A stretch of DNA of 64,000 nucleotides from Pogonophryne albipinna (lineage: Eukaryota; Chordata; Actinopteri; Perciformes; Artedidraconidae): contig JAPTMU010000411.1 of NCBI GenBank assembly GCA_028583405.1, positions 2,501 to 66,500 on the forward strand. The letters are read 5' to 3'. The translations under genes and the position numbers were made by a program. This document shows positions 5,900 to 51,132 of this stretch, one piece after another. The notes below the pieces were generated by a model that had not been told where the DNA came from, ran no database searches, and saw only the letters and a program-made list of their open reading frames with translations. Each line of letters starts with the position of its first letter. Within the stretch, counting starts at the first letter, position 1.

Positions 5900-7679
5900 T
5901 GGCTCTGAGCGTCGGTGGCACGTGCAGGCTCCTCTTCGTCAGCGACAGCGTTTCGTGGAGCCTGTTTCTGTGTGACACGGGCGCTCAGCGGAGCGGAGCG
6001 TCGAGTGAAGACGTCGCCCGTGGGGAGCAAGGACCGCGATTGACGACGGCTAACGGCGGTGCCATTCGCACGTACGGCGTGAGGCCTATGTGTCTGTGTA
6101 TCGGTGGACAGCGTTTCAGCTGGAATTTCGTGTGTTGTAGCTGAGAGGTTTTTACAACCCACCTCGGCCCAGCGTGTCGTTTGGCGAGCTGCTCGAAATC
6201 ATAACAGTATGGAAAATCAGAAAACACCAGGATACCAGTTAAACAATAATCTGTTTTAATTATAAAAGGTAATAATGCAATGCAATACAATTCAATATAA
6301 TTAGGAGCGCTCCTGCTCTAGTTTCTCGTGCTGGTGGGATTCTTCGGTCTTCGCAGCAGGAGGAAAAAGAGAACGAACTTAATACAAAACAAACTTATAT
6401 AGCATAAAACACGGAAGGGGCTGAGTCAAATGCTCCTTTTCTCAGGTCATCTCATTGGGAGATGTAAAACGCTGGCGTCTCTTAGCGAATCAGCGCGAGC
6501 CAGCCAGGATAATAAACAAGTGTCTCTGAGATGGTAGCAAAATACATCTGGTGTCCGTTATCTCACTTTCCTGCATAGACTTTCACACACACACTTTTCT
6601 GCACATTCCAGAGGCTTGAGCTGTATCCAAATAATATCCCCTTGTTCACAAAGATAATACATATTAATACTCTCATATTCCAGCTTCTGGTTACACAGAC
6701 TGCTTATTATGAATACAAAGTAATTAAACACACACATCTACTATTCAAAGTATGTAGACTTCACTGACATGTTGGAAATCTTTAAGAAGAATATTCCCTC
6801 GCCCCACCTAGTCTCCTGTCCTGCATAACTGCGCCTCCCCCACAGAGTAATACAAATCTGTTTACTCCAACCAACCCCGGAATGTTCATAGCAATTTTAG
6901 TCCCCACATTTATGAAAGAATAAAAACAGAGAAATCAATATAAAACACAAACACAGGTATTGTTTGAGCAGTCTTCACGTAGCTGCTCCAATAGTCTTAT
7001 ATCTGGGGGAAATCCCGCTGTTATTTGCGCAGACTTTCTGAAAAACACTTAACAGGTAATCTTTTCACTCAAAACAGAACTCACAAATAGCCAAAAAACC
7101 ACCCTTTTGATTATATGTAAAAGTGGAAGAAAAAGACTATTCCGCTAATCTACTTTTAAGAAAAAGGGAACATTGTTTGAATATATAAAAAACCTCTCTA
7201 TACTTTGTTCCTTCAACTATTAACACACAGGAATGTATAAAACCACACATATATTAGTGATAACATGATGCAACACACCTCTTATATATGCGTGACATTA
7301 AAATGAATATACCAAAAATACGCTGTATTAACTTTTCACTTCAAACCTTCAAGTTACTTCAATTTTCCGCACAGTGACAGCGGACATTTCTTTTCCCCTC
7401 CTCGGAGCGGATTTTTTGTGTGCTCATGGACTCTTAGTGGACGTTAAGAATAGGCGTTTGTTTGATGCCTTAACGTTTTCTTCCCTCGTGTGCAAACTTG
7501 GCAGCGCAGCGTACGACGGGCTGTCAGGCTCGCTGTCAGGGGCAGACACGTTTCTCAGACTGTTGGCCGAGTTTCCAGACCTGTCGCTACCCACCTTCTC
7601 TGCGCTTACCACTAAGCATGGCGTGGAGCACCACGTCACTACCGGGGGGCCTCATGTCTACGCCAGGGCCCGGCGGTGA
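5900..7679 (+). pseudogene. Gypsy protease, split by an insertion
   Basis: The N-terminal half is read just after gag in a different frame. It contains the retropepsin active site LCDTGAQRS (Asp codon near 5974) and a flap-like region ending GGQRFSWNFV at 6132. The reading resumes at 7377 with TADISFPLLGADFLCAHG, the classic C-terminal half (LLGADFL), in a frame that runs to a stop at 7677. The two halves read through cleanly if 6133-7373 and one GTG duplication are removed. The protease therefore cannot be made from this copy. The family's normal role is to cleave Gag-Pol in the particle. Confidence 0.85.
6133..7373. mobile_element. 1241-bp insertion in the protease, possibly a solo LTR
   Basis: The segment begins TGTTGTAGC and ends CCGCACA, giving TG..CA termini. 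It is flanked by GTG at 6130-6132 and 7374-7376. It is AT-rich, unlike the GC-rich gypsy coding sequence around it, and has no long ORF. TG..CA ends plus AT-rich, TATA-like sequence would fit a solo LTR, probably read on the minus strand (TATATAAG near 7283). However, a 3-bp duplication is shorter than usual for retroviral or gypsy integrases, so the class is uncertain. What is clear is that it is a later insertion. Confidence 0.6.
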
Positions 7680-9700: not shown

Positions 9701-10365
9701 GGACCGCACCTAAGGAAGATCTGCAGTGTTCTACAGCGGAGATGGTCTACGGTCAGCCGCTGAGAGTTCCGGGGGATTTCCTCCCAAATGCATCAGCTCC
9801 CTGGTCTGCCAAGGCCCAGCGAGTTTTTCTGCGTGACGCGGCGGAGGCTTTCGCTCCAGTCCCGACTACTCAGCACGGTGCGCCAGGGTCTCAAGTTCCC
9901 GCGGAGCTACGCTCGGCTGGGCACGTCTTCATTCGTCACGACGCACACAGAGGCCCCCTGCAGCCCCCTTACGATGGACCTTTCCGGGTTTTGGAACACG
10001 GTGAAAAACACCTTGTGGTTGACATGGGCGGTAAGGCTGAGCACGTCTCGGTTGACCGGGTGAAGGCTGCTCACTTGGACGTGGACCGGCCGGTGGTGCT
10101 GGCTCGGCCGCCGAGACGGGGCCGACCCCCGGCTTTGATTCCTGTCAGGGAGTGTGGACCTGTTGTTCCGGTCCCTCCTCTGTCAGGGGGCGCACGGGCG
10201 GAGGTCGCTGTACCGACTCCTGTGCGCAGGTCTCGTGGGGGCAGGCGGATTGTTCCTCCCGCCATACGGATTTTGTGTACACGTGAATTCTGGGGGGGCT
10301 TGTGTGGTGACACGTTATTGGACATAATTCACCTCTCGTATTGTGTTGCCACACGGACCCTTTAG
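9632..10365 (+). pseudogene. Gypsy integrase C-terminus (frame-shifted end of Pol)
   Basis: In a different frame from the main pol frame, the sequence picks up TDGNWVDKLPWVMLGLRTAPKED, a typical end of the gypsy integrase core. The GPY/F-type module follows (PPYDGPFRVLEHGEKHLVVD, then VSVDRVKAAHLD). A Pro/Arg-rich tail runs into the 3' LTR. The first Met in frame is at 9688, but homology starts upstream, so this is the continuation of pol past a frameshift at about 9630. I see no chromodomain. Confidence 0.85.
10291..10302 (+). other. Polypurine tract of the gypsy element
   Basis: A run of seven G (10292-10298) stands immediately upstream of the 3' LTR. This is where plus-strand DNA synthesis is primed in this family. 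Confidence 0.75.
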
Positions 10366-10639: not shown

Positions 10640-10856
10640 AGAGGGGTGCAGGAATGAGTCCTAAACCCTGAAATAAGTCAGCATTTTATCACTTCCTGTT
10701 CCCTCGTCTGGGCGTTTTTTTCAGCATGTTTTGGTTAGAAGCCTAAATTAAGTTCTTTGTTTATTATTAAAAATACATCAGTAAATACTCTGCCGGTGAA
10801 TTTAAAAACGACGGTTGTTTACAAGTGTCTAAATGAGACGACTCAACGTCATCACG
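10640..10856 (+). mobile_element. Left flank of the dispersed element that carries the 72-bp repeats
   Basis: This stretch (including 'gcaggaatgagtcct' and 'tgaatttaaaaac') matches, with divergence, the sequence that precedes the second 72-bp array at about 50425-50644. Its first part is found a third time at about 54372-54445 without the repeats. That pattern means the array is internal to a dispersed element. Termini were not identified. Confidence 0.65.
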
Positions 10857-11216
10857 CCCAACATTAGCCGCCTTTAGTTTAGCGGTGGTGACATGATGTC
10901 ATGTGACCGTGCTGTAGTTCCTTTATAGCCCAACATCAGCCACCTTTAGCTTAGCGGTGGTGACGTGAAGTCATGTGACCGTGCTGTAGTTCCTTTATAG
11001 CCCAACATTAGCCACCTTTAGCTTAGCGGTGGTGACATGATGTCATGTGACCGTGCTGTAGTTCCTTTATAGCCCAACATCAGCCACCTTTAGCTTAGCG
11101 GTGGTGACGTGAAGTCATGTGACCGTGCTGTAGTTCCTTTATAGCCCAACATTAGCCACCTTTAGCTTAGCGGTGGTGACGTGAAGTCATGTGACCGTAG
11201 TTCCTTTATAGCCTAA
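10857..11216 (+). repeat. 72-bp minisatellite, about 5 copies (locus 1)
   Basis: The start motif CCCAACAT recurs at 10857, 10929, 11001, 11073 and 11145, exactly 72 bases apart. Units contain 'cctttagcttagcggtggtg' and 'gtcatgtgacc'. The last unit is truncated. Variants alternate between 'gacatgatgtca' and 'gacgtgaagtca', suggesting dimeric amplification. Confidence 0.95.
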
Positions 11217-16768: not shown

Positions 16769-19700
16769 CCTCTTCTTCATGTCTCTTCTACATCAACATG
16801 TGTCCCCTCTTCTTCATGTCTCTTCTACATCAACATGTGTCCCCTCTTCTCCATGTCTCTTCTACATCAACATGTGACCCTCTTCTCCATGTCTCTTCTA
16901 CATCAACATGTGTCCCCTCTTCTTCATGTCTCTTCTACATCAACATGTGTCCCCTCTTCTTCATGTCTCTTCTACATCAGCATGTGTCCCCTCTTCTTCA
17001 TGTCTCTTCTACATCAACATGTGTCCCCTATTCTCCATGTCTCTTCTACATCAACATGTGTCCCCTCTTCTTCATGTCTCTTCTACATCAACATGTGTCC
17101 CCTCTTCTCCATGTCTCTTCTACATCAACATGTGTCCCCTCTTCTTCATGTCTCTTCTACATCAACATGTGTCCCCTCTTCATCATGTCTCTTCTACATC
17201 AACATGTGTCCCCTCTTCATCATGTCTCTTCTACATCAACATGTGTCCCCTCTTCTCCATGTCTCTTCTACATCAACATGTGTCCCCTCTTCTTCATGTC
17301 TCTTCTACATCAACATGTGTCCCCTCTTCTTCATGTCTCTTCTACATCAACATGTGTCCCCTCTTCTTCATGTCTCTTCTACATCAACATGTGTCCCCTC
17401 TTCTTCATTTCTCTTCTACATCAACATGTGTCCCCTCTTCTTCATGTCTCCTCTACATCAACATGTGTCCCCTCTTCTTCATGTCTCCTCTACATCAACA
17501 TGTGTCCCCTCTTCTTCATGTCTCCTCTACATCAACATGTGTCCCCTCTTCTTCATGTCTCTTCTACATCAACATGTGTCCCCTCTTCTCCATGTCTCTT
17601 CTACATCAACATGTGTCCCCTCTTCTTCATGTCTCTTCTACATCAACATGTGTCCCCTCTTCTCCATGTCTCTTCTACATCAACATGTGTCCCCTCTTCT
17701 TCATGTCTCTTCTACATCAACATGTGTCCCCTCTTCTTCATGTCTTTTCTACATCAACATGTGTCTCCTCTTCTTCATGTCTCTTCTACATCAACATGTG
17801 TCCCCTCTTCTCCATGTCTCCTCTACATCAACATGTGTCCCCTCTTCTTCATGTCTCTTCTACATCAACATGTGTCCCCTCTTCTTCATGTCTCCTCTAC
17901 ATCAACATGTGTCCCCTCTTCTTCATGTCTCTTCTACCTCAACATGTGTCCCCTCTTCTTCATGTCTTTCTACATCAACATGTGTCCCCTCTTCGTCATG
18001 TCTCTTCTACATCAACATGTGTCCCCTCTTCTTCATGTCTCCTCTACATCAACATGTGTCCCCTCTTCTTCATGTCTCCTCTACATCAACATGTGTCCCC
18101 TCTTCTTCATGTCTCTTCTACATCAACATGTGTCCCCTCTTCTTCATGTCTCTTCTACATCAACATGTGTCCCCTCTTCTTCATGTCTCTTCTACATCAA
18201 CATGTGTCCCCTCTTCTTCATGTCTCTTCTACATCAACATGTGTCCCCTCTTCTTCATGTCTCTTCTAAATCAACATGTGTCCCCTCTTCTTCATGTCTC
18301 TTCTACATCAACATGTGTCCCCTCTTGTCCATGTCTCTTCTACATCAAACATGTGTCCCCTCTTCTTCATGTCTCTTCTACATCAACATGTGTCCCCTCT
18401 TCTTCATGTCTCTTCTAAATCAACATGTGTCCCCTCTTCTTCATGTCTCTTCTACATCAACATGTGTCCCCTCTTCTTCATGTCTCTTCTACATCAACAT
18501 GTGTCCCCTCTTCTCTATGTCTCTTCTACATCAACATGTGTCCCCTCTTCTCCATGTCTCTTCTACATCAACATGTGTCCCCTCTTCTTCATGTCTCCTC
18601 TACATCAACATGTGTCCCCTCTTCTTCATGTCTCCTCTACATCAACATGTGTCCCCTCTTCTTCATGTCTCTTCTACATCAACATGTGTCCCCTCTTCTT
18701 CATGTCTTTTCTACATCAACATGTGTCCCCTCTTCGTCATGTCTCTTCTACATCAACATGTGTCCCCTCTTCTTCATGTCTCCTCTACATCAACATGTGT
18801 CCCCTCTTCTTCATGTCTCCTCTACATCAACATGTGTCCCCTCTTCTTCATGTCTCTTCTACATCAACATGTGTCCCCTCTTCTTCATGTCTCTTCTACA
18901 TCAACATGTGTCCCCTCTTCTTCATGTCTCTTCTACATCAACATGTGTCCCCTCTTCTTCATGTCTCTTCTACATCAACATGTGTCCCCTCTTCTTCATG
19001 TCTCTTCTACATCAACATGTGTCCCCTCTTCTTCATGTCTCTTCTACATCAACATGTGTCCCCTCTTGTCCATGTCTCTTCTACATCAACATGTGTCCCC
19101 TCTTCTTCATGTCTCTTCTACATCAACATGTGTCCCCTCTTCTTCATGTCTCTTCTAAATCAACATGTGTCCCCTCTTCTTCATGTCTCTTCTACATCAA
19201 CATGTGTCCCCTCTTCTTCATGTCTCTTCTACATCAACATGTGTCCCCTCTTCTCTATGTCTCTTCTACATCAACATGTGTCCCCTCTTCTCCATGTCTC
19301 TTCTACATCAACATGTGTCCCCTCTTATTCATGTCTCTTCTACATCAACATGTGTCCCCTCTTCTTCATGTCTTTTCTACATCAACATGTGTCCCCTCTT
19401 CGTCATGTCTCTTCTACATCAACATGTGTTCCCCTCTTCTTCATGTCTCCTCTACATCAACATGTGTCCCCTCTTCTTCATGTCTCCTCTACATCAACAT
19501 GTGTCCCCTCTTCTTCATGTCTCTTCTACATCAACATGTGTCCCCTCTTCTTCATGTCTCTTCTACATCAACATGTGTCCCCTCTTCTTCATGTCTCTTC
19601 TACATCAACATGTGTCCCCTCTTCTCCATGTCTCTTCTACATCAACATGTGTGCCCTCTTCTTCATGTCTCTTCTACATCAACATGTGTCCCCTCTTCTT

Positions 19701-21320
19701 CATGTCTCTTCTACATCAACATGTGTCCCCTCTTCTTCATGTCTCTTCTACATCAACATGTGTCCCCTCTTCTTCCATATCTCTTCTACATCAACATGTG
19801 TCCCCCTCTTCTTCATGTCTCCTCTACATCAACATGTGTCCCCTCTTCTTCATGTCTCTTCTACATCAACATGTGTCCCCTCTTCTCATATCTCTTCTAC
19901 ATCAACATGTGTCCCCTCTTCTTCATGTCTCTTCTACACCAACATGTGTCCCCTCTTCTTCATGTCTCTTCTACATCAACATGTGTCCCCTCTTCTCCAT
20001 GTCTCTTCTACATCAACATGTGTCCCCTCTTCTTCATGTCTCTTCTACATCAACATGTGTCCCCTCTTCTCCATGTCTCTTCTACATCAACATGTGTCCC
20101 CTCTTCTTCATGTCTCTTCTACATCAACATGTGTCCCCTCTTCTTCATGTCTTTTCTACATCAACATGTGTCTCCCTCTTCTTCATGTCTCTTCTACATC
20201 AACATGTGTCCCCTCTTCTCCATGTCTCCTCTACATCAACATGTGTCCCCTCTTCTTCATGTCTCTTCTACATCAACATGTGTCCCCTCTTCTTCATGTC
20301 TCCTCTACATCAACATGTGTCCCCTCTTCTTCATGTCTCTTCTACATCAACATGTGTCCCCTCTTCTTCATGTCTCTTCTACATCAACATGTGTCCCCTC
20401 TTCTTCATGTCTCTTCTACATCAACATGTGTCCCCTCTTCGTCATGTCTCTTCTACATCAACATGTGTCCCCTCTTCTTCATGTCTCCTCTACATCAACA
20501 TGTGTCCCCTCTTCTTCATGTCTCCTCTACATCAACATGTGTCCCCTCTTCTTCATGTCTCTTCTACATCAACATGTGTCCCCTCTTCTTCATGTCTCTT
20601 CTACATCAACATGTGTCCCCTCTTCTTCATGTCTCTTCTACATCAACATGTGTCCCCTCTTCTTCATGTCTCTTCTACATCAACATGTGTCCCCTCTTCT
20701 TCATGTCTCTTCTACATCAAACATGTGTTCCCCTCTTCTCTATGTCTCTTCTACATCAACATGTGTCCCCTCTTCTCCATGTCTCTTTCTACATCAACAT
20801 GTGTCCCCTCTTCTTCATGTCTCTTCTACATCAACATGTGTCCCCTCTTCTTCATGTCTTTTCTACATCAACATGTGTCCCCTCTTCGTCATGTCTCTTC
20901 TACATCAACATGTGTCCCCTCTTCTTCATGTCCTCCTCTACATCAACATGTGTCCCCTCTTCTTCATGTCTCTTCTACATCAACATGTGTCCCCTCTTCT
21001 TCATGTCTCTTCTACATCAACATGTGTCCCCTCTTCTCCATGTCTCTTCTACATCAACATGTGTCCCCTCTTCTTCATGTCTCTTCTACATCAACATGTG
21101 TCCCCTCTTCTTCATGTCTCTTCTACATCAACATGTGTCCCCTCTTCTCCATATCTCTTCTACATCAACATGTGTCCCCTCTTCTTCATGTCTCCTCTAC
21201 ATCAACATGTGTCCCCTCTTCTTCATGTCTCTTCTACATCAACATGTGTCCCCTCTTCTTCATGTCTCTTCTACATCAACATGTGTCCCCTCTTCTTCAT
21301 GTCTCCTCTACATCAACATG
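16769..21320 (+). repeat. 37-bp minisatellite, about 123 copies
   Basis: Units built on 'catgtctcttctacatcaac' and 'atgtgtcccctcttctt' repeat every 37 bases with few substitutions and occasional 1-bp indels. Rare variants give higher-order steps: CTTGTCC recurs after 741 bp (18324, 19065) and TTCTAAATC after 740 bp (18413, 19153), that is 20 units. The unit has no stop codon in any of the three forward frames, so three overlapping frames of up to about 1015 codons appear. I do not consider these genes. The left edge is joined to MITE-end sequence (16752-16769). Confidence 0.98.
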
Positions 21321-21467
21321 TAGCCAGAGCTGGTTTTTTAACTCTGCAGTTATTGCAGCCTCAGCACTCGGCGACCCCGCTCTGTAACTCTACGTGGTCT
21401 TCCACTTCGTGGCTGAGTTGCTGTGGTTCCTAAACACCTGAATTAAATGATTAAGAGGAGTGTCCCA

Positions 21468-22858: not shown

Positions 22859-23878
<1,020 letters not shown>

Positions 23879-26800
23879 GTATATCAGTATGTAGTGTCTC
23901 TACTTTAAAGAGTCCTCTCCTGCTGATGTCCAGGTGTATATCAGTATGGAGTGTCTCTACTTTAAAGAGTCCTCTCCTGCTGATGTTCAGGTGTATATCA
24001 GTATGGAGTGTCTCTACTTTAAAGAGTCCTCTCCTGCTGATGTTCAGGTGTATATCAGTATGTAATGTCTCTACTTTAAAGAGTCCTCTCCTGCTGATGT
24101 TCAGGTGTATATCAGTATGTAATGTCTCTACTTTAAAGAGTCCTCTCCTGCTGATGTTCAGGTGTATATCAGTATGTAGTGTCTCTACTTTAAAGAGTCC
24201 TCTCCTGCTGATGTTCAGGTGTATATCAGTATGTAGTGTCTCTACTTTAAAGAGTCCTCTCCTGCTGATGTTCAGGTGTATATCAGTATGTAGTGTCTCT
24301 ACTTTAAAGAGTCCTCTCCTGCTGATGTTCAGGTGTATATCAGTATGTAGTGTCTCTACTTTAAAGAGTCCTCTCCTGCTGATGTTCAGGTGTATATCAG
24401 TATGTAGTGTCTCTACTTTAAAGAGTCCTCTCCTGCTGATGTTCCGGTGTATATCAGTATGTAGTGTCTCTACTTTAAAGAGTCCTCTCCTGCTGATGTT
24501 CAGGTGTATATCAGTATGTAGTGTCTCTACTTTAAAGAGTCCTCTCCTGCTGATGTTCAGGTGCATATCAGTATGTAGTGTCTCTACTTTAAAGAGTCCT
24601 CTCCTGCTGATGTTCAGGTGTATATCAGTATGTAGTGTCTCTACTTTAAAGAGTCCTCTCCTGCTGATGTTCAGGTGTATATCAGTATGGAGTGTCTCTA
24701 CTTTAAAGAGTCCTCTCCTGCTGATGTTCAGGTGTATATCAGTATGTAGTGTCTCTACTTTAAAGAGTCCTCTCCTGCTGATGTTCAGGTGTATATCAGT
24801 ATGTAGTGTCTCTACTTTAAAGAGTCCTCTCCTGCTGATGTTCAGGTGTATATCAGTATGTAGTGTCTCTACTTTAAAGAGTCCTCTCCTGCTGATGTTC
24901 AGGTGTATATCAGTATGTAGTGTCTCTACTTTAAAGAGTCCTCTCCTGCTGATGTTCAGGTGTATATCAGTATGTAGTGTCTCTACTTTAAAGAGTCCTC
25001 TCCTGGTGATGTTCAGGAGTATATCAGTATGTAGTGTCTCTACTTTAAAGAGTGCTCTCCTGCTCATGTTCAGGTGTATATCAGTATGTCGTGTCCCTAC
25101 TTTAAAGAGTCCTCACCTGCTGGTGTTCAGGTGTATATCAGTATGTAGTGTCTCTACTTTAAAGAGTCCTCTCCTGCTGATGTTCAGGTGTATATCAGTA
25201 TGTAGTGTCTTTACTTTAAAGAGTCCTCTCCTGCTGATGTTCAGGTGTATATCAGTATGTATTGTCTCTACTTTAAAGAGTCCTCTCCTGCTGATGTTCA
25301 GGTGTATATCAGTATGTAGTGTTTCTACTTTAAAGAGTCCTCTCCTGCTGATGTTCAGGTGTATATCAGTATGTAGTGTCTCTACTTTAAAGAGTCCTCT
25401 CCTGCTGATGTTCAGGTGTATATCAGTATGTAGTGTCTCTACTTTAAAGAGTCCTCTCCTGCTGATGTTCAGGTGTGTATCAGTATGTAGTGTCTCTACT
25501 TTAAAGAGTCCTCTCCTGCTGATGTTCAGGTGTATATCAGTATGTAGTGTCTCTACTTTAAAGAGTCCTCTCCTGCTGATGTTCAGGTGTATATCAGTAT
25601 GTAGTGTCTCTACTTTAAAGAGTTCTCTCCTGCTGATGTTCAGGTGTATATCAGTAGTGTCTCTACTTTAAAGAGTCCTCTCCTGCTGATGTTCAGGTGT
25701 ATATCAGTGTGTAGTGTCTCTACTTTAAAGAGTCCTCTCCTGCTGATGTTCAGGTGTATATCAGTATGTAGTGTCTCTACTTTAAAGAGTCCTCTCCTGC
25801 TGATGTTCAGGTGTATATCAGTGTGTAGTGTCTCTACTTTAAAGAGTCCTCTCCTGCTGATGTTCAGATATATATCAGTATGTAGTGTCTCTACTTTAAA
25901 GAGTCCTCTCCTGCTGATGTTCAGGTGTATATCAGTGTGTAGTGTCTCTACTTTAAAGAGTCCTCTCCTGCTGATGTTCAGGTGTATATCAGTATGTAGT
26001 GTCTCTACTTTAAAGAGTCCTATCCTGCTGATGTTCAGGTGTATATCAGTATGGAGTGTCTCTACTTTAAAGAGTCCTCTCCTGCTGATGTTCAGGTGTA
26101 TATCAGTATGTAGTGTCTCTACTTTAAAGAGTCCTCTCCTGCTGATGTTCAGGTGTATATCAGTATGTAGTGTCTCTACATTAAAGAGTCCTCTCCTGCT
26201 GATGTTCAGGTGTATATCAGTATGTAGTGTCTCTACTTTAAAGAGTCCTCTCCTGCTGATGTTCAGGTGTATATCAGTATGTAGTGTCTCCACTTTAAAG
26301 AGTCCTCTCCTGCTGATGTTCAGGTGTATATCAGTATGTAGTGTCTCTACTTTAAAGAGTCCTCTCCTGCTGATGTTCAGGTGTATATCAGTATGTAGTG
26401 TCTTTACTTTAAAGAGTCCTCTCCTGCTGATGTTCAGGTGTATATCAGTATGTATTGTCTCTACTTTAAAGAGTCCTCTCCTGCTGATGTTCAGGTGTAT
26501 ATCAGTATGTAGTGTCTCTACTTTAAAGAGTCCTCTCCTGCTGATGTTCAGGTGTATATCAGTATGTAGTGTCTCTACTTTAAAGAGTCCTCTCCTGCTG
26601 ATGTTCAGGTGTATATCAGTATGTAGTGTCTCTACTTTAAAGAGTCCTCTCCTGCTGATGTTCAGGTGTGTATCAGTATGTAGTGTCTCTACTTTAAAGA
26701 GTCCTCTCCTGCTGATGTTCAGGTGTATATCAGTATGTAGTGTCTCTACTTTAAAGAGTCCTCTCCTGCTGATGTTCAGGTGTATATCAGTATGTAGTGT

Positions 26801-29800
26801 CTCTACTTTAAAGAGTTCTCTCCTGCTGATGTTCAGGTGTATATCAGTAGTGTCTCTACTTTAAAGAGTCCTCTCCTGCTGATGTTCAGGTGTATATCAG
26901 TGTGTAGTGTCTCTACTTTAAAGAGTCCTCTCCTGCTGATGTTCAGGTGTATATCAGTATGTAGTGTCTCTACTTTAAAGAGTCCTCTCCTGCTGATGTT
27001 CAGGTGTATATCAGTGTGTAGTGTCTCTACTTTAAAGAGTCCTCTCCTGCTGATGTTCAGGTATATATCAGTATGTAGTGTCTCTACTTTAAAGAGTCCT
27101 CTCCTGCTGATGTTCAGGTGTATATCAGTGTGTAGTGTCTCTACTTTAAAGAGTCCTCTCCTGCTGATGTTCAGGTGTATATCAGTATGTAGTGTCTCTA
27201 CTTTAAAGAGTCCTATCCTGCTGATGTTCAGGTGTATATCAGTATAGTGTCTCTACTTAAAAGAGTTCTCTCCTGCTGATGTTAAGGTGTATATCAGTGT
27301 GTAGTGTCTCTGCTTTAAAGAGTCCTCTCCTGCTGATGTTCAGGTGTATATCAGTATGGAGTGTCTCTACTTTAAAGAGTCCTCTCCTGCTGATGTTCAG
27401 GTGTATATCAGTATGTAGTGTCTCTACTTTAAAGAGTCCTCTCCTGCTGATGTTCAGGTGTATATCAGTATGGAGTGTCTCTACTTTAAAGAGTCCTCTC
27501 CTGCTGATGTCCAGGTGTATATCCGTATGGAGTGTATCTACTTTAAAGAGTCCTCTCCTGCTGATGTTCAGGTGTATATCAGTATGGAGTGTCTCTACTT
27601 TAAAGAGTCCTCTCCTGCTGATGTTCAGGTGTATATCAGTATGGAGTGTCTCTACTTTAAAGAGTCCTCTCCTGCTGATGTTCAGGTGTATATCAGTATG
27701 GAGTGTCTCTACTTTAAAGAGTCCTCTCCTGCTGATGTTCAGGTGTATATCAGTATGGAGTGTCTCTACTTTAAAGAGTCCTCTCCTGCTGATGTTCAGG
27801 TGTATATCAGTATGGAGTGTCTCTACTTTAAAGAGTCCTCTCCTGCTGATGTTCAGGTGTATATCAGTATGTAGTGTCTCTACTTTAAAGAGTCCTCTCC
27901 TGCTGATGTTCAGGTGTATATCAGTATGTAGTGTCTCTACTTTAAAGAGTCCTCTCCTGCTGATGTTCAGGTGTATATCAGTATGGAGTGTCTCTACTTT
28001 AAAGAGTCCTCTCCTGCTGATGTTCAGGTGTATATCAGTATGGAGTGTCTCTACTTTAAAGAGTCCTCTCCTGCTGATGTTCAGGTGTATATCAGTATGG
28101 AGTGTCTCTACTTTAAAGAGTCCTCTCCTGCTGATGTTCAGGTGTATATCAGTATGGAGTGTCTCTACTTTAAAGAGTCCTCTCCTGCTGATGTTCAGGT
28201 GTATATCAGTATGTAGTGTCTCTACTTTAAAGAGTCCTCTCCTGCTGATGTTCAGGTGTATATCAGTATGTAGTGTCTCTACTTTAAAGAGTCCTCTCCT
28301 GCTGATGTTCAGGTGTATATCAGTATGGAGTGTCTCTACTTTAAAGAGTCCTCTCCTGCTGATGTCCAGGTGTATATCCGTATGGAGTGTATCTACTTTA
28401 AAGAGTCCTCTCCTGCTGATGTTCAGGTGTATATCAGTATGGAGTGTCTCTACTTTAAAGAGTCCTCTCCTGCTGATGTTCAGGTGTATATCAGTATGGA
28501 GTGTCTCTACTTTAAAGAGTCCTCTCCTGCTGATGTTCAGGTGTATATCAGTATGGAGTGTCTCTACTTTAAAGAGTCCTCTCCTGCTGATGTTCAGGTG
28601 TATATCAGTATGGAGTGTCTCTACTTTAAAGAGTCCTCTCCTGCTGATGTTCAGGTGTATATCAGTATGTAGTGTCTCTACTTTAAAGAGTCCTCTCCTG
28701 CTGATGTTCAGGTGTATATCAGTATGTAGTGTCTCTACTTTAAAGAGTCCTCTCCTGCTGATGTTCAGGTGTATATCAGTATGGAGTGTCTCTACTTTAA
28801 AGAGTCCTCTCCTGCTGATGTTCAGGTGTATATCAGTATGGAGTGTCTCTACTTTAAAGAGTCCTCTCCTGCTGATGTTCAGGTGTATATCAGTATGGAG
28901 TGTCTCTACTTTAAAGAGTCCTCTCCTGCTGATGTTCAGGTGTATATCAGTATGTAGTGTCTCTACTTTAAAGAGTCCTCTCCTGCTGATGTTCAGGTGT
29001 ATATCAGTATGGAGTGTCTCTACTTTAAAGAGTCCTCTCCTGCTGATGTTCAGGTGTATATCAGTATGGAGTGTCTCTACTTTAAAGAGTCCTCTCCTGC
29101 TGATGTTCAGGTGTATATCAGTATGGAGTGTCTCTACTTTAAAGAGTCCTCTCCTGCTGATGTTCAGGTGTATATCAGTATGTAGTGTCTCTACTTTAAA
29201 GAGTCCTCTCCTGCTGATGTTCAGGTGTATATCAGTATGTAGTGTCTCTACTTTAAAGAGTCCTCTCCTGCTGATGTTCAGGTGTATATCAGTATGGAGT
29301 GTCTCTACTTTAAAGAGTCCTCTCCTGCTGATGTCCAGGTGTATATCCGTATGGAGTGTATCTACTTTAAAGAGTCCTCTCCTGCTGATGTTCAGGTGTA
29401 TATCAGTATGGAGTGTCTCTACTTTAAAGAGTCCTCTCCTGCTGATGTTCAGGTGTATATCAGTATGGAGTGTCTCTACTTTAAAGAGTCCTCTCCTGCT
29501 GATGTTCAGGTGTATATCAGTATGGAGTGTCTCTACTTTAAAGAGTCCTCTCCTGCTGATGTTCAGGTGTATATCAGTATGTAGTGTCTCTACTTTAAAG
29601 AGTCCTCTCCTGCTGATGTTCAGGTGTATATCAGTATGGAGTGTCTCTACTTTAAAGAGTCCTCTCCTGCTGATGTTCAGGTGTATATCAGTATGGAGTG
29701 TCTCTACTTTAAAGAGTCCTCTCCTGCTGATGTTCAGGTGTATATCAGTATGGAGTGTCTCTACTTTAAAGAGTCCTCTCCTGCTGATGTTCAGGTGTAT

Positions 29801-30735
29801 ATCAGTATGTAGTGTCTCTACTTTAAAGAGTCCTCTCCTGCTGATGTTCAGGTGTATATCAGTATGTAGTGTCTCTACTTTAAAGAGTCCTCTCCTGCTG
29901 ATGTTCAGGTGTATATCAGTATGGAGTGTCTCTACTTTAAAGAGTCCTCTCCTGCTGATGTCCAGGTGTATATCCGTATGGAGTGTATCTACTTTAAAGA
30001 GTCCTCTCCTGCTGATGTTCAGGTGTATATCAGTATGGAGTGTCTCTACTTTAAAGAGTCCTCTCCTGCTGATGTTCAGGTGTATATCAGTATGGAGTGT
30101 CTCTACTTTAAAGAGTCCTCTCCTGCTGATGTTCAGGTGTATATCAGTATGGAGTGTCTCTACTTTAAAGAGTCCTCTCCTGCTGATGTTCAGGTGTATA
30201 TCAGTATGGAGTGTCTCTACTTTAAAGAGTCCTCTCCTGCTGATGTTCAGGTGTATATCAGTATGGAGTGTCTCTACTTTAAAGAGTCCTCTCCTGCTGA
30301 TGTTCAGGTGTATATCAGTATGTAGTGTCTCTACTTTAAAGAGTCCTCTCCTGCTGATGTTCAGGTGTATATCAGTGTGTAGTGTCTCTACTTTAAAGAG
30401 TCCTCTCCTGCTGATGTTCAGGTGTATATCAGTATGTAGTGTCTCTACTTTAAAGAGTCCTCTCCTGCTGATGTTCAGGTGTATATCAGTATGTAGTGTC
30501 TCTACTTTAAAGAGTCCTCTCCTGCTGATGTTCAGGTGTATATCAGTATGGAGTGTCTCTACTTTAAGAGTCCTCTCCTGCTGATGTTCAGGTGTATATC
30601 AGTATGTAGTGTCTCTACTTTAAAGAGTCCTCTCCTGCTGATGTTCAGGTGTATATCAGTATGGAGTGTCTCTACTTTAAAGAGTCCTCTCCTGCTGATG
30701 TTCAGGTGTATATCAGTATGGAGTGTCTCTACTGT
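23879..30735 (+). repeat. 57-bp minisatellite, about 120 copies, with higher-order repeats
   Basis: Units of 57 bases, built on 'gtgtatatcagtatgtagtg', 'tctctactttaaagagtcct' and 'ctcctgctgatgttcag', run head to tail. Because 57 is 19 codons, each frame repeats every 19 residues. This produces long artefactual frames on both strands (up to 1101 codons on plus, 405 on minus). In one forward frame the common T/G variant (TATGTAG against TATGGAG) turns a stop on or off. Higher-order structure: a 1193-bp duplication (25205 to 26398) and a marker unit repeated at exact multiples of 57. I do not regard the frames as genes. Confidence 0.98.
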
Positions 30736-40315: not shown

Positions 40316-41739
40316 TCATGTTTTTTTTTCTTGTTCCTTCAGGAATGGCTGAATAATAACTGTGGTGGCAATGGCAGCCATGCCGGCCTTACCTTCCACA
40401 CCTGCCACTGTCACTCCATACACTGCCACATCAGTCTGACACAGAAGACTGCTGAGGACGCCCTCTACCTCTGTGGTGGAGACATTTTCTCCTCGCCAGC
40501 GGAACGTGTCACCACCACGGTCACGGAAGTACATGTAGCCAAATTCATCCATCACCAGCACGTCACCTGATAAATATGCAGAATCATTTTTCTTGAAGAC
40601 ATTGTGAGCTATCTTCTTTTTAGTAGCGTCCTGGTTAGCGTAGCCATCAAAACGCCGTAATGGATCCTGCTGGTTGATACGACCCACCAGAAGCCCTGGC
40701 TCCCCAGGGCGGCAAGTCACACAGAGCCCCCGGCTGTCTCGAACCAGCTCCATGCTGTCCTCGTCCACCCTCACCAGACGGATTGGGTAAATATTGGGGA
40801 GAATGCGACTGTTGAATCCGCAGGCTCCCACCTTGCCATCCATGTTGGCGATGCTGCAGTTGCACTCTTGCTCCATAGAACTCGCCAATCTGTGCCACCC
40901 CAAAACGCTCTGTGAAGGCCTCCCACACACTGGGGCGCAGCCCGTTCCCCACCGCCAGCCGAACTTTGTGTCCTTTTTCTGACGGCCGTACTGGCTGAGA
41001 CAGGAGGTAGCGGCAGATCTCCCCAATATACTGCACCACAGTGCAGTTGTACTTAATGCAATCTTCCCAGAAGCGGCAAGCAGAGAATTTCTTCTTCACT
41101 ACCACAGTGAGGCCATGGATCAGACATTGACCGACGCCCATGATATTACCTGCTGAGTGATAGAGAGGCAGGCAGTCATAGATGATGTCAACTGGGCTCA
41201 TGCGAAAGGCGAAATATCCAAAAGCAGCAATTCTGTAGTAACGACTGTGTACAACAATGGCAGCCTTTGGCAGTCCTGTGGTGCCGGAGGTGTAAATGTA
41301 AAATAGACGGTCATTCATGCCTTTGGGGGGAACACAAGGTGTGGGGTGATGTTTAGGTGACAAGGCTAAGATTGGGTCCAGAGGTTGAGCACCCGGAAGG
41401 GCCAGATGTTCTGCACCGAGGTCCCCTGTACTGAACCGTACCATGGCCTGGTTCATGGAGGAACTGACCTCTGACATGGCATCAGCAAGCTCAGTTCCAA
41501 ACACAATGGCCCGGGACCCGGACACCCCAACACAGTGCACGAGGGAATCATTCCGCAGGTTGAAGTTGATGAGTGCAGCTTCCACCCCAACCTTGGCCAA
41601 GCCCAGCCAAAGAGCCACCTGCAACGGTCTGCTTTCCATGAAGAGGGCCACCACATCACCCGAGACCCACCCCTGACCTCTGGCCCAGTGGGCCACGGCA
41701 TTAGACATCTCGTCCAGCTGAGTGAAGGTCCAAATGATT
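40316..41739 (-). pseudogene. slc27a1: Intronless, 5'-truncated, frameshifted copy of slc27a1 (FATP1)
   Basis: Read on the minus strand from 41739, the product is a long-chain fatty acid transport protein/acyl-CoA synthetase. It begins around [16 protein letters not shown], about a fifth of the way into the family. It carries the AMP-binding loop [14 protein letters not shown] (about 41261-41297), [30 protein letters not shown], and the FATP signature [19 protein letters not shown]. Wording such as RIAAFG and [13 protein letters not shown] fits FATP1 better than FATP4. A frame change near 40873, just before [10 protein letters not shown], breaks the ORF. Homology ends after GMAAIA, and the last 17 residues are unrelated. 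About 1.4 kb without an intron, where the normal gene is multi-exon, indicates a retrocopy. The normal protein is a membrane enzyme for fatty acid uptake. Confidence 0.82.
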
Positions 41740-42142
41740 TGTTGCGACCTGGCTCAAAAGGCCACAACAAAAAGGAGACACAACATGTCAACGGGTAGGT
41801 AAAGGTGTTTATTTAGGACAAACAAATCAAAACCAGTAAAGTATGAGGTGTGGAAGTCAGTGGTATCAGTAATGTAAATGCAGGGTGAGGATTGTATGGA
41901 CATGTATGTGTGTGAGAGTGTTGAAGTGCACAAAGTAAAGCAACTGAAGAAACTCCTATTATACTCAACAAAACCGGTGTGCCTGCAGGGAGAAGCAGAG
42001 AGAGCACAGAGAGGAGCAGAGAGGCGTTAAATAGCTGCAGGACACCAGACCCAGGTGCCCTGAGTTACTGCAATCACCAATCACCACAGCATAGACAGGA
42101 CAGCCACCTCCTCTCTACTGATGAACCCACAGGGGCATCACA
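41740..42142 (-). repeat. 3' LTR (about 403 bp) of the defective retroelement
   Basis: On the minus strand it starts TGTGATGCCCC right after the polypurine tract and ends GTCGCAACA. It contains a TATTTAA box (about 42029-42023) and an AATAAA signal (about 41815-41810) in the expected order for U3-R-U5. No target duplication can be scored because the other LTR is missing. Confidence 0.8.
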
Positions 42143-43669
42143 GCCCCCCCCCTTAAGACGGGGCCCCAAAGGGATCCACGACAACCCAATATCCTCCTTC
42201 TTAACTCCAGCTTTTTTAATTTCCTTCTTAGGACTGGAGGACGCTCCTCCTCCGCCGCTGTCCCACTCCTCCTTGGGTTGGCTGGCGTTGATCCACAGCA
42301 TGTAGGCGCTCATCGGCCTCTTGGGCACGCCGACCTCCTTCGGCCTCCTCTTGTTCGGCCTCCTCTTGTTCGGCCTCCTCTTGTTCGGCCTCCTCTTCTT
42401 CGCTTTGCAGGGTTTCCTCTCTTTCTTCTCCTTCTTCTTTGTCTCGATCTCAAAGTCAAAGGACCGTGCTGGACCACATTTTCCAGACTCCGAAACAGGT
42501 AGGTCAGTCGACATCCTACGGTTCTGCGCACGCGTAACAGTATAAACTGGAGACACACTTGGAAATTGCAAACCGCTCTCATCTGGCTCTACAGATGCCA
42601 ACGGCCTGGAAACCACCACAGGCGGTGGCACACCCGCCCACACAGCACTACCAGCTAGATCGTTGCCCAAAATCATCTGTACCCCATCAAGTGGCAACGC
42701 GGGACGCACGCCGATAGACACAACTCCCCGTACCAGCTCACAATCCAGCACTACTGTATGAAGTTGCACAGGAATCAAGCCCATCTCCATGCCCCTCATC
42801 AGCACAAAATCCCCTGTTTCTGTCTCTGACGAAAAAGGCAACACTGACTCAACAATAAATGAGTATCTAGCTGCTGTGTCACGCAACACCTTAATCGGAA
42901 CATACTTGTCACTACCGACCATTGATACAACGGCTTCCGTTATGAACGGCTCAAAAACAGAACCCACCTCCAAGTCGGCACAAACCAGCTTCTTAACAGG
43001 CACCATGCCCGATCTTACACCCTGCGGCTTTTTAACCAAAACGGCAGAACAACACATGGCTGGAGCATGTGATGAAGAACGAGGCTTCCCCTCAGGTTCC
43101 AGCAACGGACACCGCTCCTTCCAATGACCCTCTTCTCGGCAATAATGACATTGGCCCACTCTGGCGCCCTCGGATCGCCCTGGACCTACAAATCTACGGG
43201 AGGAGCCTGGTGAAAACTTTGCACCACCGCGGGCATAGCCATTGTCTTCTCCACGTTTCCAATCACCCCTAGAATACTTCTCAGTAAAACTGCCCTTATG
43301 TGTCAACACAAAATCGTCCGCTAATTCAGCAGCTCTAAACGCGGTGGAAGGCTTCTGTTCATTCACATAAGTGGCCACACGCTGAGGGAGAATGTCTTTA
43401 AATTGTTCCAAGACAATGAGCTCACAAAGACCGTCAAAACTTGCAACCTTTGCTGCCGCACACCAGCGCTGAAAATGAGAAGTTAAATCACGGATAAACT
43501 CCACATGTGTCTGTTTATCTTCCTTGACCAAACTTCTGAACCTTTGACGATACGCTTCAGGAACCAGTTCGTAAGACTTCAACACCGCTGATTTTACTCT
43601 ATCATAGTCCAAAGCATTTTCGCCACAAACAGCTGAATGGCTTCCTGTGCTCGCCCAGTGAGTACACAC
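42074..43669 (-). CDS. Gag C-terminus, retropepsin-like domain and SSRP1-like HMG fragment in one frame
   Basis: A 531-codon open frame. True homology starts near 43620, where the upstream gag frame is lost; the first Met is not a credible start. In order: a SCAN-like gag domain (YELVPEAYRQRFRSLVKED, LEQFKDILPQRVATYVNEQ), a zinc knuckle CHYCREEGHWKERC, and a protease-like region with LRDTAARYSFI, where the usual DTG reads DTA, followed by LGNDLAG. Then comes a lysine-rich tract with four near-identical 15-bp units (KRRPN, 42341-42400) and PKRPMSAYMLWINAS, the start of an HMG box as in SSRP1. This jumps to KEEWD and GGGGASSSPKKE, also SSRP1-like, so about 30-35 residues of the box are missing. 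The end, DIGLSWIPLGPRLKGG, is element-derived and runs into the LTR. Function unknown; it may not be translated because of the frameshift. Confidence 0.75.
   Translation of the reverse strand: MCTHWASTGSHSAVCGENALDYDRVKSAVLKSYELVPEAYRQRFRSLVKEDKQTHVEFIRDLTSHFQRWCAAAKVASFDGLCELIVLEQFKDILPQRVATYVNEQKPSTAFRAAELADDFVLTHKGSFTEKYSRGDWKRGEDNGYARGGAKFSPGSSRRFVGPGRSEGARVGQCHYCREEGHWKERCPLLEPEGKPRSSSHAPAMCCSAVLVKKPQGVRSGMVPVKKLVCADLEVGSVFEPFITEAVVSMVGSDKYVPIKVLRDTAARYSFIVESVLPFSSETETGDFVLMRGMEMGLIPVQLHTVVLDCELVRGVVSIGVRPALPLDGVQMILGNDLAGSAVWAGVPPPVVVSRPLASVEPDESGLQFPSVSPVYTVTRAQNRRMSTDLPVSESGKCGPARSFDFEIETKKKEKKERKPCKAKKRRPNKRRPNKRRPNKRRPKEVGVPKRPMSAYMLWINASQPKEEWDSGGGGASSSPKKEIKKAGVKKEDIGLSWIPLGPRLKGGGCDAPVGSSVERRWLSCLCCGDW
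42260..42331 (-). other. Partial HMG box resembling SSRP1
   Basis: Residues VPKRPMSAYMLWINASQ join directly to KEEWD. In SSRP1 and other HMG-box proteins these are the first helix and the start of the last helix, with about 30-35 residues between them. The central helix is therefore deleted and the box is unlikely to fold normally. Assignment to SSRP1 rests on the SAYMLW..NAS wording, the preceding KKERKP tract and the following GGGASSSPKKE tail. Confidence 0.75.
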
Positions 43670-44409
43670 TGAAGTAACAGCACTCTGTCCGAATCTGACC
43701 AGTTTCTTGCCTCTGCTATGCGTTCAAATAGAGTGAAAAAAATGTCCGGGTCACGCTCATTAAACTTTGGCACTAATCGCAAGTAAGAAATGATATCGCC
43801 ACTGCCTGATGCCGACCTATCACCACCATCCTCCCCTGGAGAAAACTTGCCCTCTCCCATCAGCCGTAATCTAGCATGTTCCACCTCACATTTCATCTTT
43901 TCCACCTCCAGCACCTTCTCCACCTCTAAACGCTTCTCTACCTCCTGCTGCTGACCCCTCATCTCCAACTGCAACTTCTCCTGCTCCAACCTCAACTCCA
44001 ACTGCAACTTCTCCTGCTCCAACCTCAACTTCTCCTGTTCCAACCTCATGTCCAACTGCAACTTCTCCTGCTCCAACCTCAACTTCTCCTGCTCCAACTT
44101 TAACTCCAACCGCAATCTCTCCTGCTCCAACTGCATGGCCAAAAGCTCCTTTTGCTGCTCAAACGTCAAACCAGCTGTCTGAACCACTACCGGCACGAAC
44201 CCTGCTGCACCAGACTCACTCTTCTGCAACACCCCCTGTTCAAACAAAGATGACACAATGACAGTTTTAATGTCATGTTTCCGCTTGCTCCCCACAACAG
44301 CAATGTCATAGTGCTCTGCTATTTCGACCAACTGCGCCTTCTGGCAATCATCTAAGAAAGACACTGAGGGCGCATCCACAAACGCTGACAAAGAAGTCAT
44401 AATAGCCAA
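43594..44409 (-). CDS. gag: Gag N-terminal half with a long coiled coil
   Basis: A 271-codon frame starting MAIMTSLSAFVDAPS; MTSLSAF four residues in is an equally good start. The first ~65 residues form a small domain typical of SCAN-type fish LTR gags (FLDDCQKAQLVEIAEHYDI). From about residue 95 to 180 there is a near-perfect Glu/Leu/Gln repeat, LEQEKLRLEQEKLQLE, certainly a coiled coil. After that come YLRLVPKFNERDPDIFFTLF and the start of the capsid-like domain (LLLQCVLTGRAQEA). The frame is lost just after that point, at about 43610, and the rest of gag continues in the overlapping frame. Family role: particle assembly. Confidence 0.82.
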   Translation of the reverse strand: MAIMTSLSAFVDAPSVSFLDDCQKAQLVEIAEHYDIAVVGSKRKHDIKTVIVSSLFEQGVLQKSESGAAGFVPVVVQTAGLTFEQQKELLAMQLEQERLRLELKLEQEKLRLEQEKLQLDMRLEQEKLRLEQEKLQLELRLEQEKLQLEMRGQQQEVEKRLEVEKVLEVEKMKCEVEHARLRLMGEGKFSPGEDGGDRSASGSGDIISYLRLVPKFNERDPDIFFTLFERIAEARNWSDSDRVLLLQCVLTGRAQEAIQLFVAKMLWTMIE

Positions 44410-44953: not shown

Positions 44954-44966
44954 GGACGAGCCCCCA
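44954..44966 (-). other. Primer-binding site resembling tRNA-Pro type
   Basis: On the minus strand, TGGGGGCTCGTCC follows ..CAACAAA. This 13-mer is the start of the tRNA-Pro complement used by many gammaretrovirus-like elements; the next bases do not match the full 18-mer. Its position just beyond an LTR-like CA end supports the call. Confidence 0.75.
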
Positions 44967-48044: not shown

Positions 48045-48512
48045 ATTTCTAGTCTCTACTTTAAAGAGTCCTTTCCTGCTGATGTTCAGGTGTATATCAG
48101 TATGTAGTGTCTCTACTTTAAAGAGTCCTCTCTTGCTGATGTTCAGGTGTATATCAGTATGTAGTGTCTCTACTTTAAAGAGTTCTCTACTGCTGATGTT
48201 CAGGTGTATATCAGTGTGTAGTGTCTCTACTTTAAAGAGTCCTCTCCTGCTGATGTTCAGGTGTATATCAGTATGTAGTGTCTCTACTTTAAAGAGTCCT
48301 CTCCTGCTGATGTTCAGGTGTATATCAGTATGTAGTGTCTCTACTTTAAAGAGTTCTCTCCTGCTGATGTTCAGGTGTATATCAGTATGTAGTGTCTCTA
48401 CTTTAAAGAGTCCTCTCCTGCTGATGTTCAGGTGTATATCAGTATGTAGTGTCTCTACTTTAAAGAGTTCTCTCCTGCTGATGTTCAGGTGTATATCAGT
48501 ATGTAGTGTCTC
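48045..48512 (+). repeat. 57-bp minisatellite, about 8 copies (locus 2)
   Basis: The same unit as the 23879-30735 array. Variants such as AGTTCTCTCC alternate with AGTCCTCTCC. It is short and close to the founder state. Its right flank is shared with the large array. The 19-residue periodic frames on both strands are artefacts. Confidence 0.96.
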
Positions 48513-48680
48513 TACTGGGACATGTCTCCATGTTTTAATGTTCAAAAAGCTCTTTATTCTTCTCATACTGCCTGTGCTGCAGCACCTCTGTTCACCCTCT
48601 GTCTGAAACCAGATCCCAGTCTGCTCTGATTGTTTAGCTGGCCAGTACCCAATCGGTCAGCTAACCAATGAAATGGTGCT
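48513..48680 (+). mobile_element. Right flank of the 57-bp-repeat element (copy 2)
   Basis: 'gacatgtctccatg' and 'taatgttcaaaaagct' repeat those after the large array at 30735. The sequence then continues with 'ctgcctgtgctgcagcacct' and 'gctctgattgtttagctggc', which looks like an old dispersed fish element and is absent from copy 1. Terminus not found. Confidence 0.65.
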
Positions 48681-50424: not shown

Positions 50425-50644
50425 ATTTTAGCACTTCCGGTTCCCTCGTCTGTACGTCAATGGCCTCTTGAATGTGTTTTGTTTAGAATCCTGAAATAAG
50501 GTCTGTGGTAAACAGAAGCTGAAGAGTTTTTAACATTTTGTTCTACGGCATAAAATATATCAGTAAATAGGCCTACCCCACTGGTGAATTTAAAAACAGC
50601 GGTTCCTAACAAGTGTCTAAATGAGACGACTAAACGTCATCATG
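50425..50644 (+). mobile_element. Left flank of the 72-bp-repeat element (copy 2)
   Basis: Aligns with 10670-10856 ('gttccctcgtctg', 'tgaatttaaaaac', 'aagtgtctaaatgagacgac'). Confidence 0.7.
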
Positions 50645-51132
50645 CCAAATATTAGCTGCCTTTAGCTTAGCGGTGGTGACGTGAAGTCATGTGACTGTGC
50701 TGCAGTTCCTTTATAGCCCAACATTAGCCGCCTTTAGCTTAGCGGTGGTGACGTGAAGTCATGTGACCGTGCTGTAGTTCCTTTATAGCCCAACATTAGC
50801 CGCCTTTAGCTTAGCGGTGGTGACGTGAAGTCATGTGACTGTGCTGTAGTTCCTTTATAGCCCAACATTAGCCGCCTTTAGCTTAGCGGTGGTGACGTGA
50901 AGTCATGTGACTGTGCTGCAGTTCCTTTATAGCCCAACATTAGCCGCCTTTAGCTTAGCGGTGGTGACGTGAAGTCATGTGACTGTGCTGCAGTTCCTTT
51001 ATAGCCCAACATTAGCCTCCTTTAGCTTAGCGGTGGTGACGTGAAGTCATGTGACCGTGCTGTAGTTCCTTTATAGCCTAAAGTTAGCCACCTTTAGCTT
51101 AGCGGTGGTGACGTTAAGTCAAGAGACCGTGC
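50645..51132 (+). repeat. 72-bp minisatellite, about 6.8 copies (locus 2)
   Basis: CCCAACATT recurs at 50717, 50789, 50861, 50933 and 51005, exactly 72 bases apart, with a degenerate first and last unit. Same unit as at 10857. Here nearly all units carry GACGTGAAGTCATGTGAC, whereas locus 1 alternates two forms. Confidence 0.96.

What the first reader, a model, noticed from the sequence alone, without database searches (positions are those of the whole stretch)
42074..43669. LTR retroelement whose pol is replaced by a piece of the host chromatin gene SSRP1
In a single minus-strand frame, gag and a retropepsin-like domain pass into a Lys/Arg-rich tract, then PKRPMSAYMLWINAS, KEEWD and GGGGASSSPKKE, which read as the HMG region and tail of SSRP1 (a FACT subunit). 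The frame then returns to element sequence, the polypurine tract and the LTR. RT, RNase H and integrase are gone. This is the plan of a transducing retrovirus (pol traded for a host gene), here with a nucleosome-binding domain attached to Gag. Homology to SSRP1 is from family knowledge; the junctions are visible in the sequence; any function is inference.
Basis: partly seen in the sequence, partly recalled or inferred. Interest (0 to 1): 0.87.

Follow-up and report, generated by a model that had tools for sequence, protein, structure and literature searches.

The report
Fish retrotransposon carrying host chromatin gene
A fish jumping gene, with sister copies in two Antarctic fishes, carries in-frame pieces of the fish's own chromatin gene SSRP1 where its copying enzymes should be; it likely picked them up by accident from a messenger RNA, and would need intact relatives to spread.

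Summary
On the minus strand (42077-43723) one frame runs from SCAN-type gag and a retropepsin-fold domain into SSRP1 sequence, then element tail, polypurine tract and a 3' LTR; integrase, RT and RNase H are absent. A close relative has integrase after the same linker, and relatives with RT show integrase-RT-RNase H, the published order of Gmr1-type Ty3/gypsy elements. It is not an assembly join: four more chimeras turned up (two Gymnodraco acuticeps, one Pogonophryne albipinna, one unnamed). All share the 5' fusion and one substitution; three share the internal join NASQPKEEW with this copy, so one capture is likely. The donor is likely an Antarctic ssrp1a: RRPKEV occurs in 2 of 134 SSRP1 proteins seen, both icefishes, not in Eleginops. 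The HMG box is gutted (18 of 69 profile positions; tail predicted unfolded), so a nucleosome-binding domain on Gag is not supported. What all five copies keep is the basic tract, with four RRP units here. This copy has a gag frameshift and no detectable 5' LTR. The plan resembles maize Bs1 and gag-onc viruses; no such vertebrate retrotransposon appeared in my paper listings.

The parts
44954..44966 (-). Primer-binding-site-like TGGGGGCTCGTCC (proline-tRNA type, recalled)
   Evidence: sequence; the tRNA assignment is recalled, not tested
43594..44400 (-). N-terminal half of gag (starts MTSLSAFVDAPSV), in a different frame from the rest: frameshift near 43.6 kb
   Evidence: 73% identical to the start of P0003 over 255 columns, 71% to P0002 over 260
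43295..43561 (-). SCAN domain (gag capsid C-terminal part)
   Evidence: Pfam PF02023 E 2.9e-19, residues 55-143
43106..43153 (-). CCHC zinc knuckle of gag
   Evidence: Pfam PF00098 E 0.0075, below cut-off; the same family, also below cut-off, in P0003 and P0112
42650..42961 (-). Retropepsin-fold domain; catalytic motif reads DTA, not DTG
   Evidence: AlphaFold2 10-residue mean pLDDT 66-96 over residues 251-360; Foldseek hits HTLV-1, HIV-1, RSV proteases and DDI proteins, best E 1.5e-4; motif count
42194..42466 (-). SSRP1-derived segment, 91 codons: RSFDFEIET, basic tract, start of HMG box, KEEWD, GGGGASSSPKKE...GVKKE
   Evidence: third-position GC 0.79 against 0.45 in gag-protease; net charge +21
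42339..42402 (-). 15-bp in-frame repeat (NKRRP units) expanding the basic tract
   Evidence: 4 RRP units here, 3 in P0001, 2 in P0003, 1 each in P0002, P0004 and icefish SSRP1a P0011
42272..42325 (-). First 18 of 69 positions of the HMG box (helix 1)
42260..42289 (-). Internal join NASQPKEEWD, which drops helix 2 of the HMG box; its KE/EWD part crosses a likely exon border of fish ssrp1 without an intron
42145..42193 (-). Element tail, DIGLSWIPLGPRLKGG
   Evidence: same tail in P0001 and P0003; not found in a pol-bearing relative among the 198 proteins held
42144..42154 (-). Polypurine tract
   Evidence: sequence
41740..42142 (-). 3' LTR (TGTGATG...GCAACA) with TATA-like box at 42034 and AATAAA at 41813
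   Evidence: sequence; bounds set by TG...CA and the polypurine tract, not by a second LTR

Best explanation
A Gmr1-type LTR retrotransposon, with sister copies in Antarctic fishes, carries an internally deleted piece of the host gene ssrp1a in frame behind gag and protease, where its relatives have integrase, reverse transcriptase and RNase H; it was likely captured once from spliced ssrp1a RNA by template switching during reverse transcription, and likely spread as a passenger copied in trans by intact relatives. Shown: the fusion, the absence of pol, the SSRP1 identity, the same fusion in four further proteins (two named species, two contigs of one of them), and the gutting of the HMG box. 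Inferred: template switching, spliced RNA, a single capture, trans-mobilisation, and that the SSRP1 part adds at most a basic, disordered tail to Gag-protease. The copy in the window, with a frameshifted gag and one LTR, is likely a dead relic.
For: Fusion and host origin: SSRP1 of PDB 6upk at E 1.1e-5; P0002 against icefish SSRP1a E 6.9e-16; third-position GC 0.45 in gag-protease, 0.79 in the SSRP1 part. Other copies: P0001 (Pogonophryne albipinna), P0002 and P0004 (Gymnodraco acuticeps, contigs of 2.3 and 2.0 Mb), P0003 (unnamed, ENA). Pol replaced: P0064 runs gag, protease motif, linker, Integrase_H2C2; P0083 and P0087 run integrase, RT, RNase H behind the protease motif. One capture: same 5' fusion and KAKKRRP (host P0011: KEKKRRP) in 5 of 5 chimeras; NASQPKEEW in 4 of 5 and in 0 of 134 SSRP1s. 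Donor: RRPKEV in 2 of 134 SSRP1s held, both icefishes (P0008, P0011), not in Eleginops P0116 or Cottoperca P0032. Spliced RNA: five gene models from three fishes break after the KE of KEEW; the window DNA runs across that point. Passenger: HMG match 18 of 69 positions; tail 10-residue pLDDT means 31-41.
Against: The gag-PR tree does not by itself make the five chimeras one clade: it needs two changes, 0% of 200 bootstrap trees had one, and the integrase-bearing P0064 and the truncated Trematomus P0112 sit in the same unresolved fork. The margin by which icefish SSRP1a is the closest host protein is small for the window (60/85 against 56/83) and P0001 (55/82 against 53/84); this comparison held 51 SSRP1s and not Eleginops. 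The element tail was not seen in any pol-bearing relative, so the 3' junction is defined among chimeras only. No 5' LTR here. Trans-mobilisation was not tested; the two Gymnodraco copies could be a segmental duplication. Retention and expansion of the basic tract could mean that it is useful. The exon border is inferred from faulty gene models, three of the five from Astyanax, not from an ssrp1a gene.
Confidence: 0.82

Rival explanations
1. The captured SSRP1 tail is functional for the element: its basic, NLS-like tract would bring Gag-protease (and RNA or cDNA bound to it) into the nucleus or onto chromatin, so the element kept and expanded that part while the HMG fold decayed.
For: All 5 chimeras keep the basic tract, while the HMG box is reduced in four and lost in P0003. 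RRP units: 1 in the host and in P0002 and P0004, then 2, 3 and 4. Net charge +21 over 91 residues, with the frame kept.
Against: Proteins were found because they are open, which favours in-frame copies. A 15-bp GC-rich repeat can expand by slippage alone. The tail is predicted unfolded. No expression or localisation data; the NLS likeness is by eye.
Confidence: 0.15
2. The fusion was made at the DNA level: an element inserted in, or recombined with, an ssrp1a retropseudogene or gene, and the chimera was then copied.
For: A processed copy of another host gene does abut this LTR: an apparently intronless SLC27A stretch. Several internal joins could be later deletions.
Against: In this copy and in P0001 the SSRP1 part is joined in frame both to the gag-PR linker and to the element tail, which RNA-level switching gives in one round.
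Confidence: 0.15
3. Assembly join, or chance resemblance of a Lys/Arg-rich linker to SSRP1.
For: The tract is of low complexity, and Pfam's HMG match is below its cut-off.
Against: Same fusion in the assemblies of two named species. Non-basic blocks (RSFDFEIET, PKRPMSAYMLW, KEEWD, SSSPKKE) match SSRP1 in order.
Confidence: 0.01

Closest known systems
Bs1 of maize
   Same: LTR retrotransposon with host gene pieces fused to gag (reviews, passages: PMC5408686, PMC8616336, PMC7264820); lack of RT in Bs1 is recalled.
   Different: Plant element with pieces of three host genes; the one here is Gmr1-type, in a fish, with pieces of one chromatin gene.
Transducing retroviruses with gag-onc fusions (recalled)
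   Same: Host mRNA piece joined in frame to gag, replacing pol; helper-dependent.
   Different: Retroviruses with an oncogene; here a SCAN-gag retrotransposon, with a captured domain that is gutted.
Gmr1 clade of Ty3/gypsy (Atlantic cod Gmr1, Sparus Saugg1)
   Same: SCAN-type gag; relatives with integrase before RT (order in print, passages: PMC8220671, PMC3587641; SCAN from Gmr1-like gag, passage: PMC3424704).
   Different: This element has no pol.
LTR-mediated retroposition in animals (Tan et al. 2016)
   Same: Template switching onto a host mRNA by an LTR element, reported also for zebrafish (as summarised in passages of PMC5408686; the paper itself was not held).
   Different: Summarised there as retrocopies of host genes; here the host part is fused in frame to gag-protease and recurs in several proteins and species.

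Membership tests
Gmr1-type Ty3/gypsy retrotransposon | SCAN-like gag capsid domain | tested here: met
   Pfam SCAN E 2.9e-19
Gmr1-type Ty3/gypsy retrotransposon | Integrase upstream of RT | tested here: inconclusive
   Not testable on this element (no pol); relatives P0083 and P0087 have integrase before RT, P0064 has integrase right after the linker
Gmr1-type Ty3/gypsy retrotransposon | RT in the Gmr1 clade of a tree | not testable with these tools
   no RT present in the element
Host-gene-transducing LTR element (Bs1-like, gag-onc-like) | Host coding sequence in sense and in frame with gag | tested here: met
Host-gene-transducing LTR element (Bs1-like, gag-onc-like) | Captured from spliced RNA | tested here: inconclusive
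   window DNA crosses the point at which five gene models of three fishes break; no ssrp1a gene sequence at hand to prove the border
Host-gene-transducing LTR element (Bs1-like, gag-onc-like) | More than one copy with the same junction | tested here: met
   window, P0001, P0002, P0004 share the 5' fusion and the internal join; P0003 shares the 5' fusion
Host-gene-transducing LTR element (Bs1-like, gag-onc-like) | Two LTRs flanking the unit | tested here: inconclusive
   not met in this copy, only the 3' LTR; the other four copies were seen as proteins only
Host-gene-transducing LTR element (Bs1-like, gag-onc-like) | Mobilised by a helper | not testable with these tools
   no genome-wide copies or insertion data; the genome search did not complete
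HMG-box (nucleosome-binding) protein | Complete three-helix HMG box | tested here: not met
   18 of 69 profile positions here, in P0001 and in P0002; no match reported in P0003 and P0004; full 1-69 in SSRP1a P0011

The most novel reading that the evidence does not exclude
A vertebrate retrotransposon took over the basic tract of a histone chaperone, threw away its HMG fold and amplified the basic repeat, turning Gag-protease into a nuclear, chromatin-seeking protein that helps a helper-dependent element spread during the Antarctic fish radiation.
Probability: 0.12. Interest if true: 0.88.

Novelty: new variant of a known kind. Interest (0 to 1): 0.62.

Why it matters
Host-gene transduction that replaces pol is textbook for oncogenic retroviruses (recalled) and known from maize Bs1. 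A recurring gag-host fusion in a vertebrate LTR retrotransposon did not appear in the listings of my paper searches (open-licence papers only, most seen as listings). The donor allele carries a motif that, among the SSRP1s held, only icefish proteins show, so capture, decay and spread could be followed across a well-sequenced radiation: a natural experiment on what an element keeps of a stolen gene. It also bears on gene annotation: three of the four database chimeras stand there as hypothetical or uncharacterized fish proteins.

Tried and rejected
Rejected: assembly join (same fusion in two named species); ordinary pol or linker (P0064 has integrase there); complete HMG box; retrovirus (SCAN-type gag, Gmr1-type relatives).

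Led nowhere: viral-contig scan, 18 pattern matches, none confirmed. The genome search on the window's own genome did not complete. The gag-PR tree left the chimeras unresolved. No second LTR. The model of P0002 gave a low-confidence helix at 487-494 and a fair one at 499-522, no HMG fold. Papers not held: PMC5131818, PMC3209298, PMC160511, PMC2899935.

Full report
What is there. The minus strand between about 44966 and 41740 holds a damaged LTR retroelement: a proline-type primer-binding site (tRNA recalled), a leader, gag, a protease domain, an SSRP1-derived stretch, a short element tail, polypurine tract and one 403-bp LTR. Gag is split over two frames, with a frameshift near 43.6 kb; the N-terminal frame is 73% identical to the start of P0003 over 255 columns. 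No second LTR copy was found in the window, so this copy can hardly move by itself.

Gag and protease. The frame 42077-43723 scores for SCAN (E 2.9e-19) and weakly for a CCHC knuckle. AlphaFold2 folds residues 261-357 mostly with confidence (10-residue means 76-96). Foldseek matches retroviral proteases and DDI-type relatives (14 hits at E 0.001 or better, best 1.5e-4; TM-scores by target length mostly 0.4-0.6). The catalytic triplet reads DTA. Of 56 rows examined, 12 read DTA, 39 DTG, 2 DSG and 3 had no recognised motif. P0064, which goes on into integrase, also has DTA, so the change is likely not tied to the capture.

What the ordinary relatives have there. P0064 (710 aa) goes from gag through the protease motif and a VTRAQ linker into Integrase_H2C2. 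P0083 and P0087 show integrase, then RT and RNase H, behind the protease motif. Integrase before RT is the published mark of the Gmr1 clade (passages of PMC8220671; PMC3587641; PMC2774666), and the SCAN domain is held to come from Gmr1-like gag (PMC3424704, passages).

The SSRP1 part. Codons 420-510 of the frame (42466-42194) read, in SSRP1 order: RSFDFEIET of the middle domain; the basic tract; PKRPMSAYMLW of HMG helix 1; KEEWD of helix 3; GGGGASSSPKKE and GVKKE of the tail. Two stretches are missing: about 125 residues between the middle domain and the basic tract in all 5 chimeras, and helix 2 of the HMG box in the 4 that hold its flanks. The window and P0001 also lost IKAVE...ELED, which P0002 and P0004 keep; P0003 lost the whole HMG part. 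Third-position GC is 0.79 in this stretch against 0.45 in gag-PR.

Other copies and single capture. Three protein searches listed 63, 55 and 120 (of 201) proteins, 198 distinct in all. Four are recognisable chimeras: P0001, P0002, P0003, P0004. The window is 99% identical to P0001 over 333 gag-PR columns but differs in repeat number; the window's species is not known and could be the same. KAKKRRP, where host P0011 has KEKKRRP, is in 5 of 5 chimeras; NASQPKEEW is in 4 of 5 and in none of 134 SSRP1s. Against this, the gag-PR tree does not resolve the chimeras as one clade (two changes; 0% of 200 bootstrap trees with one; P0064 and P0112 in the same fork). I rest the single capture on the shared joins.

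Donor and date. Of the 134 SSRP1 proteins held that contain RSFDFEIET, only P0008 (Chaenocephalus) and P0011 (Pseudochaenichthys, a cluster of 18) have RRPKEV. Eleginops P0116 and Cottoperca P0032 do not. The window, P0002 and P0004 have RRPKEV; P0001 has RRPNEV and P0003 RRPKED. Against: EWDIKAVEAKK is also in Sebastes P0187, KPRKEKKR in three more proteins and GVKKE in P0172, so those are not private. Among 51 SSRP1s of the first search (Eleginops not included), P0011 shares most residues with each of the four HMG-bearing chimeras: 60/85, 55/82, 73/87, 68/81; the runners-up are 56/83, 53/84, 65/85 and 59/79, so the margin is small for the first two. In the third search the query P0002 scored icefish 77, Eleginops 75, Cottoperca 70 and the next fish 62 bits. 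Eleginops is the sister of the Antarctic clade (PMC10298351, abstract and passages), whose radiation is put at 10.7 (14.1-7.8) million years, earlier work at about 22 (PMC10256766, passages). The capture therefore likely postdates the Eleginops split. SSRP1s of other Antarctic families were not seen one by one.

Spliced RNA. Of 123 SSRP1s with KKAGEMW, the filter listed eight that do not run on into EW as usual: five (P0006, P0026 and P0039 of Astyanax, P0008, P0040) break after the KE of KEEW, as a retained intron or a skipped exon would; P0029 carries an insert before EW; P0188 and P0196 merely have DW. The window DNA reads AAGGAGGAGTGGGAC across that point. This points to spliced RNA, without proving it.

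How it likely works. Gmr1 reverse transcriptase, copying packaged element RNA, likely switched to a packaged ssrp1a mRNA and back, dropping pol (inferred; the model given for LTR elements in PMC5408686, passages). The product kept primer site, gag, polypurine tract and LTR, and could be copied by enzymes of intact relatives (inferred). Two contigs of Gymnodraco hold copies, so it multiplied after capture, by retrotransposition or duplication.

What the tail does. The 10-residue pLDDT means over the SSRP1 part are 31-41, and the longer P0002 tail forms at best isolated helices. What remains is a basic tract (net +21 over 91 residues) kept in all five, with 4, 3, 2, 1 and 1 RRP units (window, P0001, P0003, P0002, P0004). 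Whether that is selected or slippage cannot be told without DNA of many copies.

Next to it. Within about ten bases of the LTR begins an apparently intronless copy of an SLC27A (fatty-acid transport protein) mRNA, read in two frames. Pfam gives AMP-binding E 9.3e-44; the PDB gives FATP2 E 7.4e-64, from its residue 79 on. Its end near 40361 and the intron content of the parent gene are recalled, not tested. Its relation to the element is open.

In print. The listings of searches showed no SSRP1 capture by a retroelement; most of those papers were seen as listings only. Word searches of PMC10256766 and PMC13131655 found no SSRP1. Only open-licence papers were searched.

Noticed in passing
40361-41739, minus: Apparently intronless, frameshifted copy of an SLC27A (fatty-acid transport protein) mRNA that starts within about ten bases of the 3' end of the LTR; lacks the first ~78 residues by comparison with FATP2.
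   Followed up: partly
42869-42880, minus: Protease catalytic triplet DTA instead of DTG, shared by 12 of 56 rows examined, including an integrase-bearing relative.
   Followed up: partly
4961-10365, plus: A second Ty3/gypsy-like element; its 7616-9697 frame has RT, RNase H, then integrase, the usual order, with the gag part by eye.
   Followed up: partly
10856-11198 and 50644-51132; 23878-30733 and 48052-48516: 72-bp and 57-bp satellite units each occur at two distant places.
   Followed up: no
16769-21321: 4.5-kb array of a 37-bp unit, 96% matches, about 123 copies.
   Followed up: no
P0097 (database protein): A Pseudochaenichthys 'cep104 isoform X1' gene model begins with a Gmr1-type gag-protease joined to what its name calls cep104; annotation artefact or insertion.
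   Followed up: no
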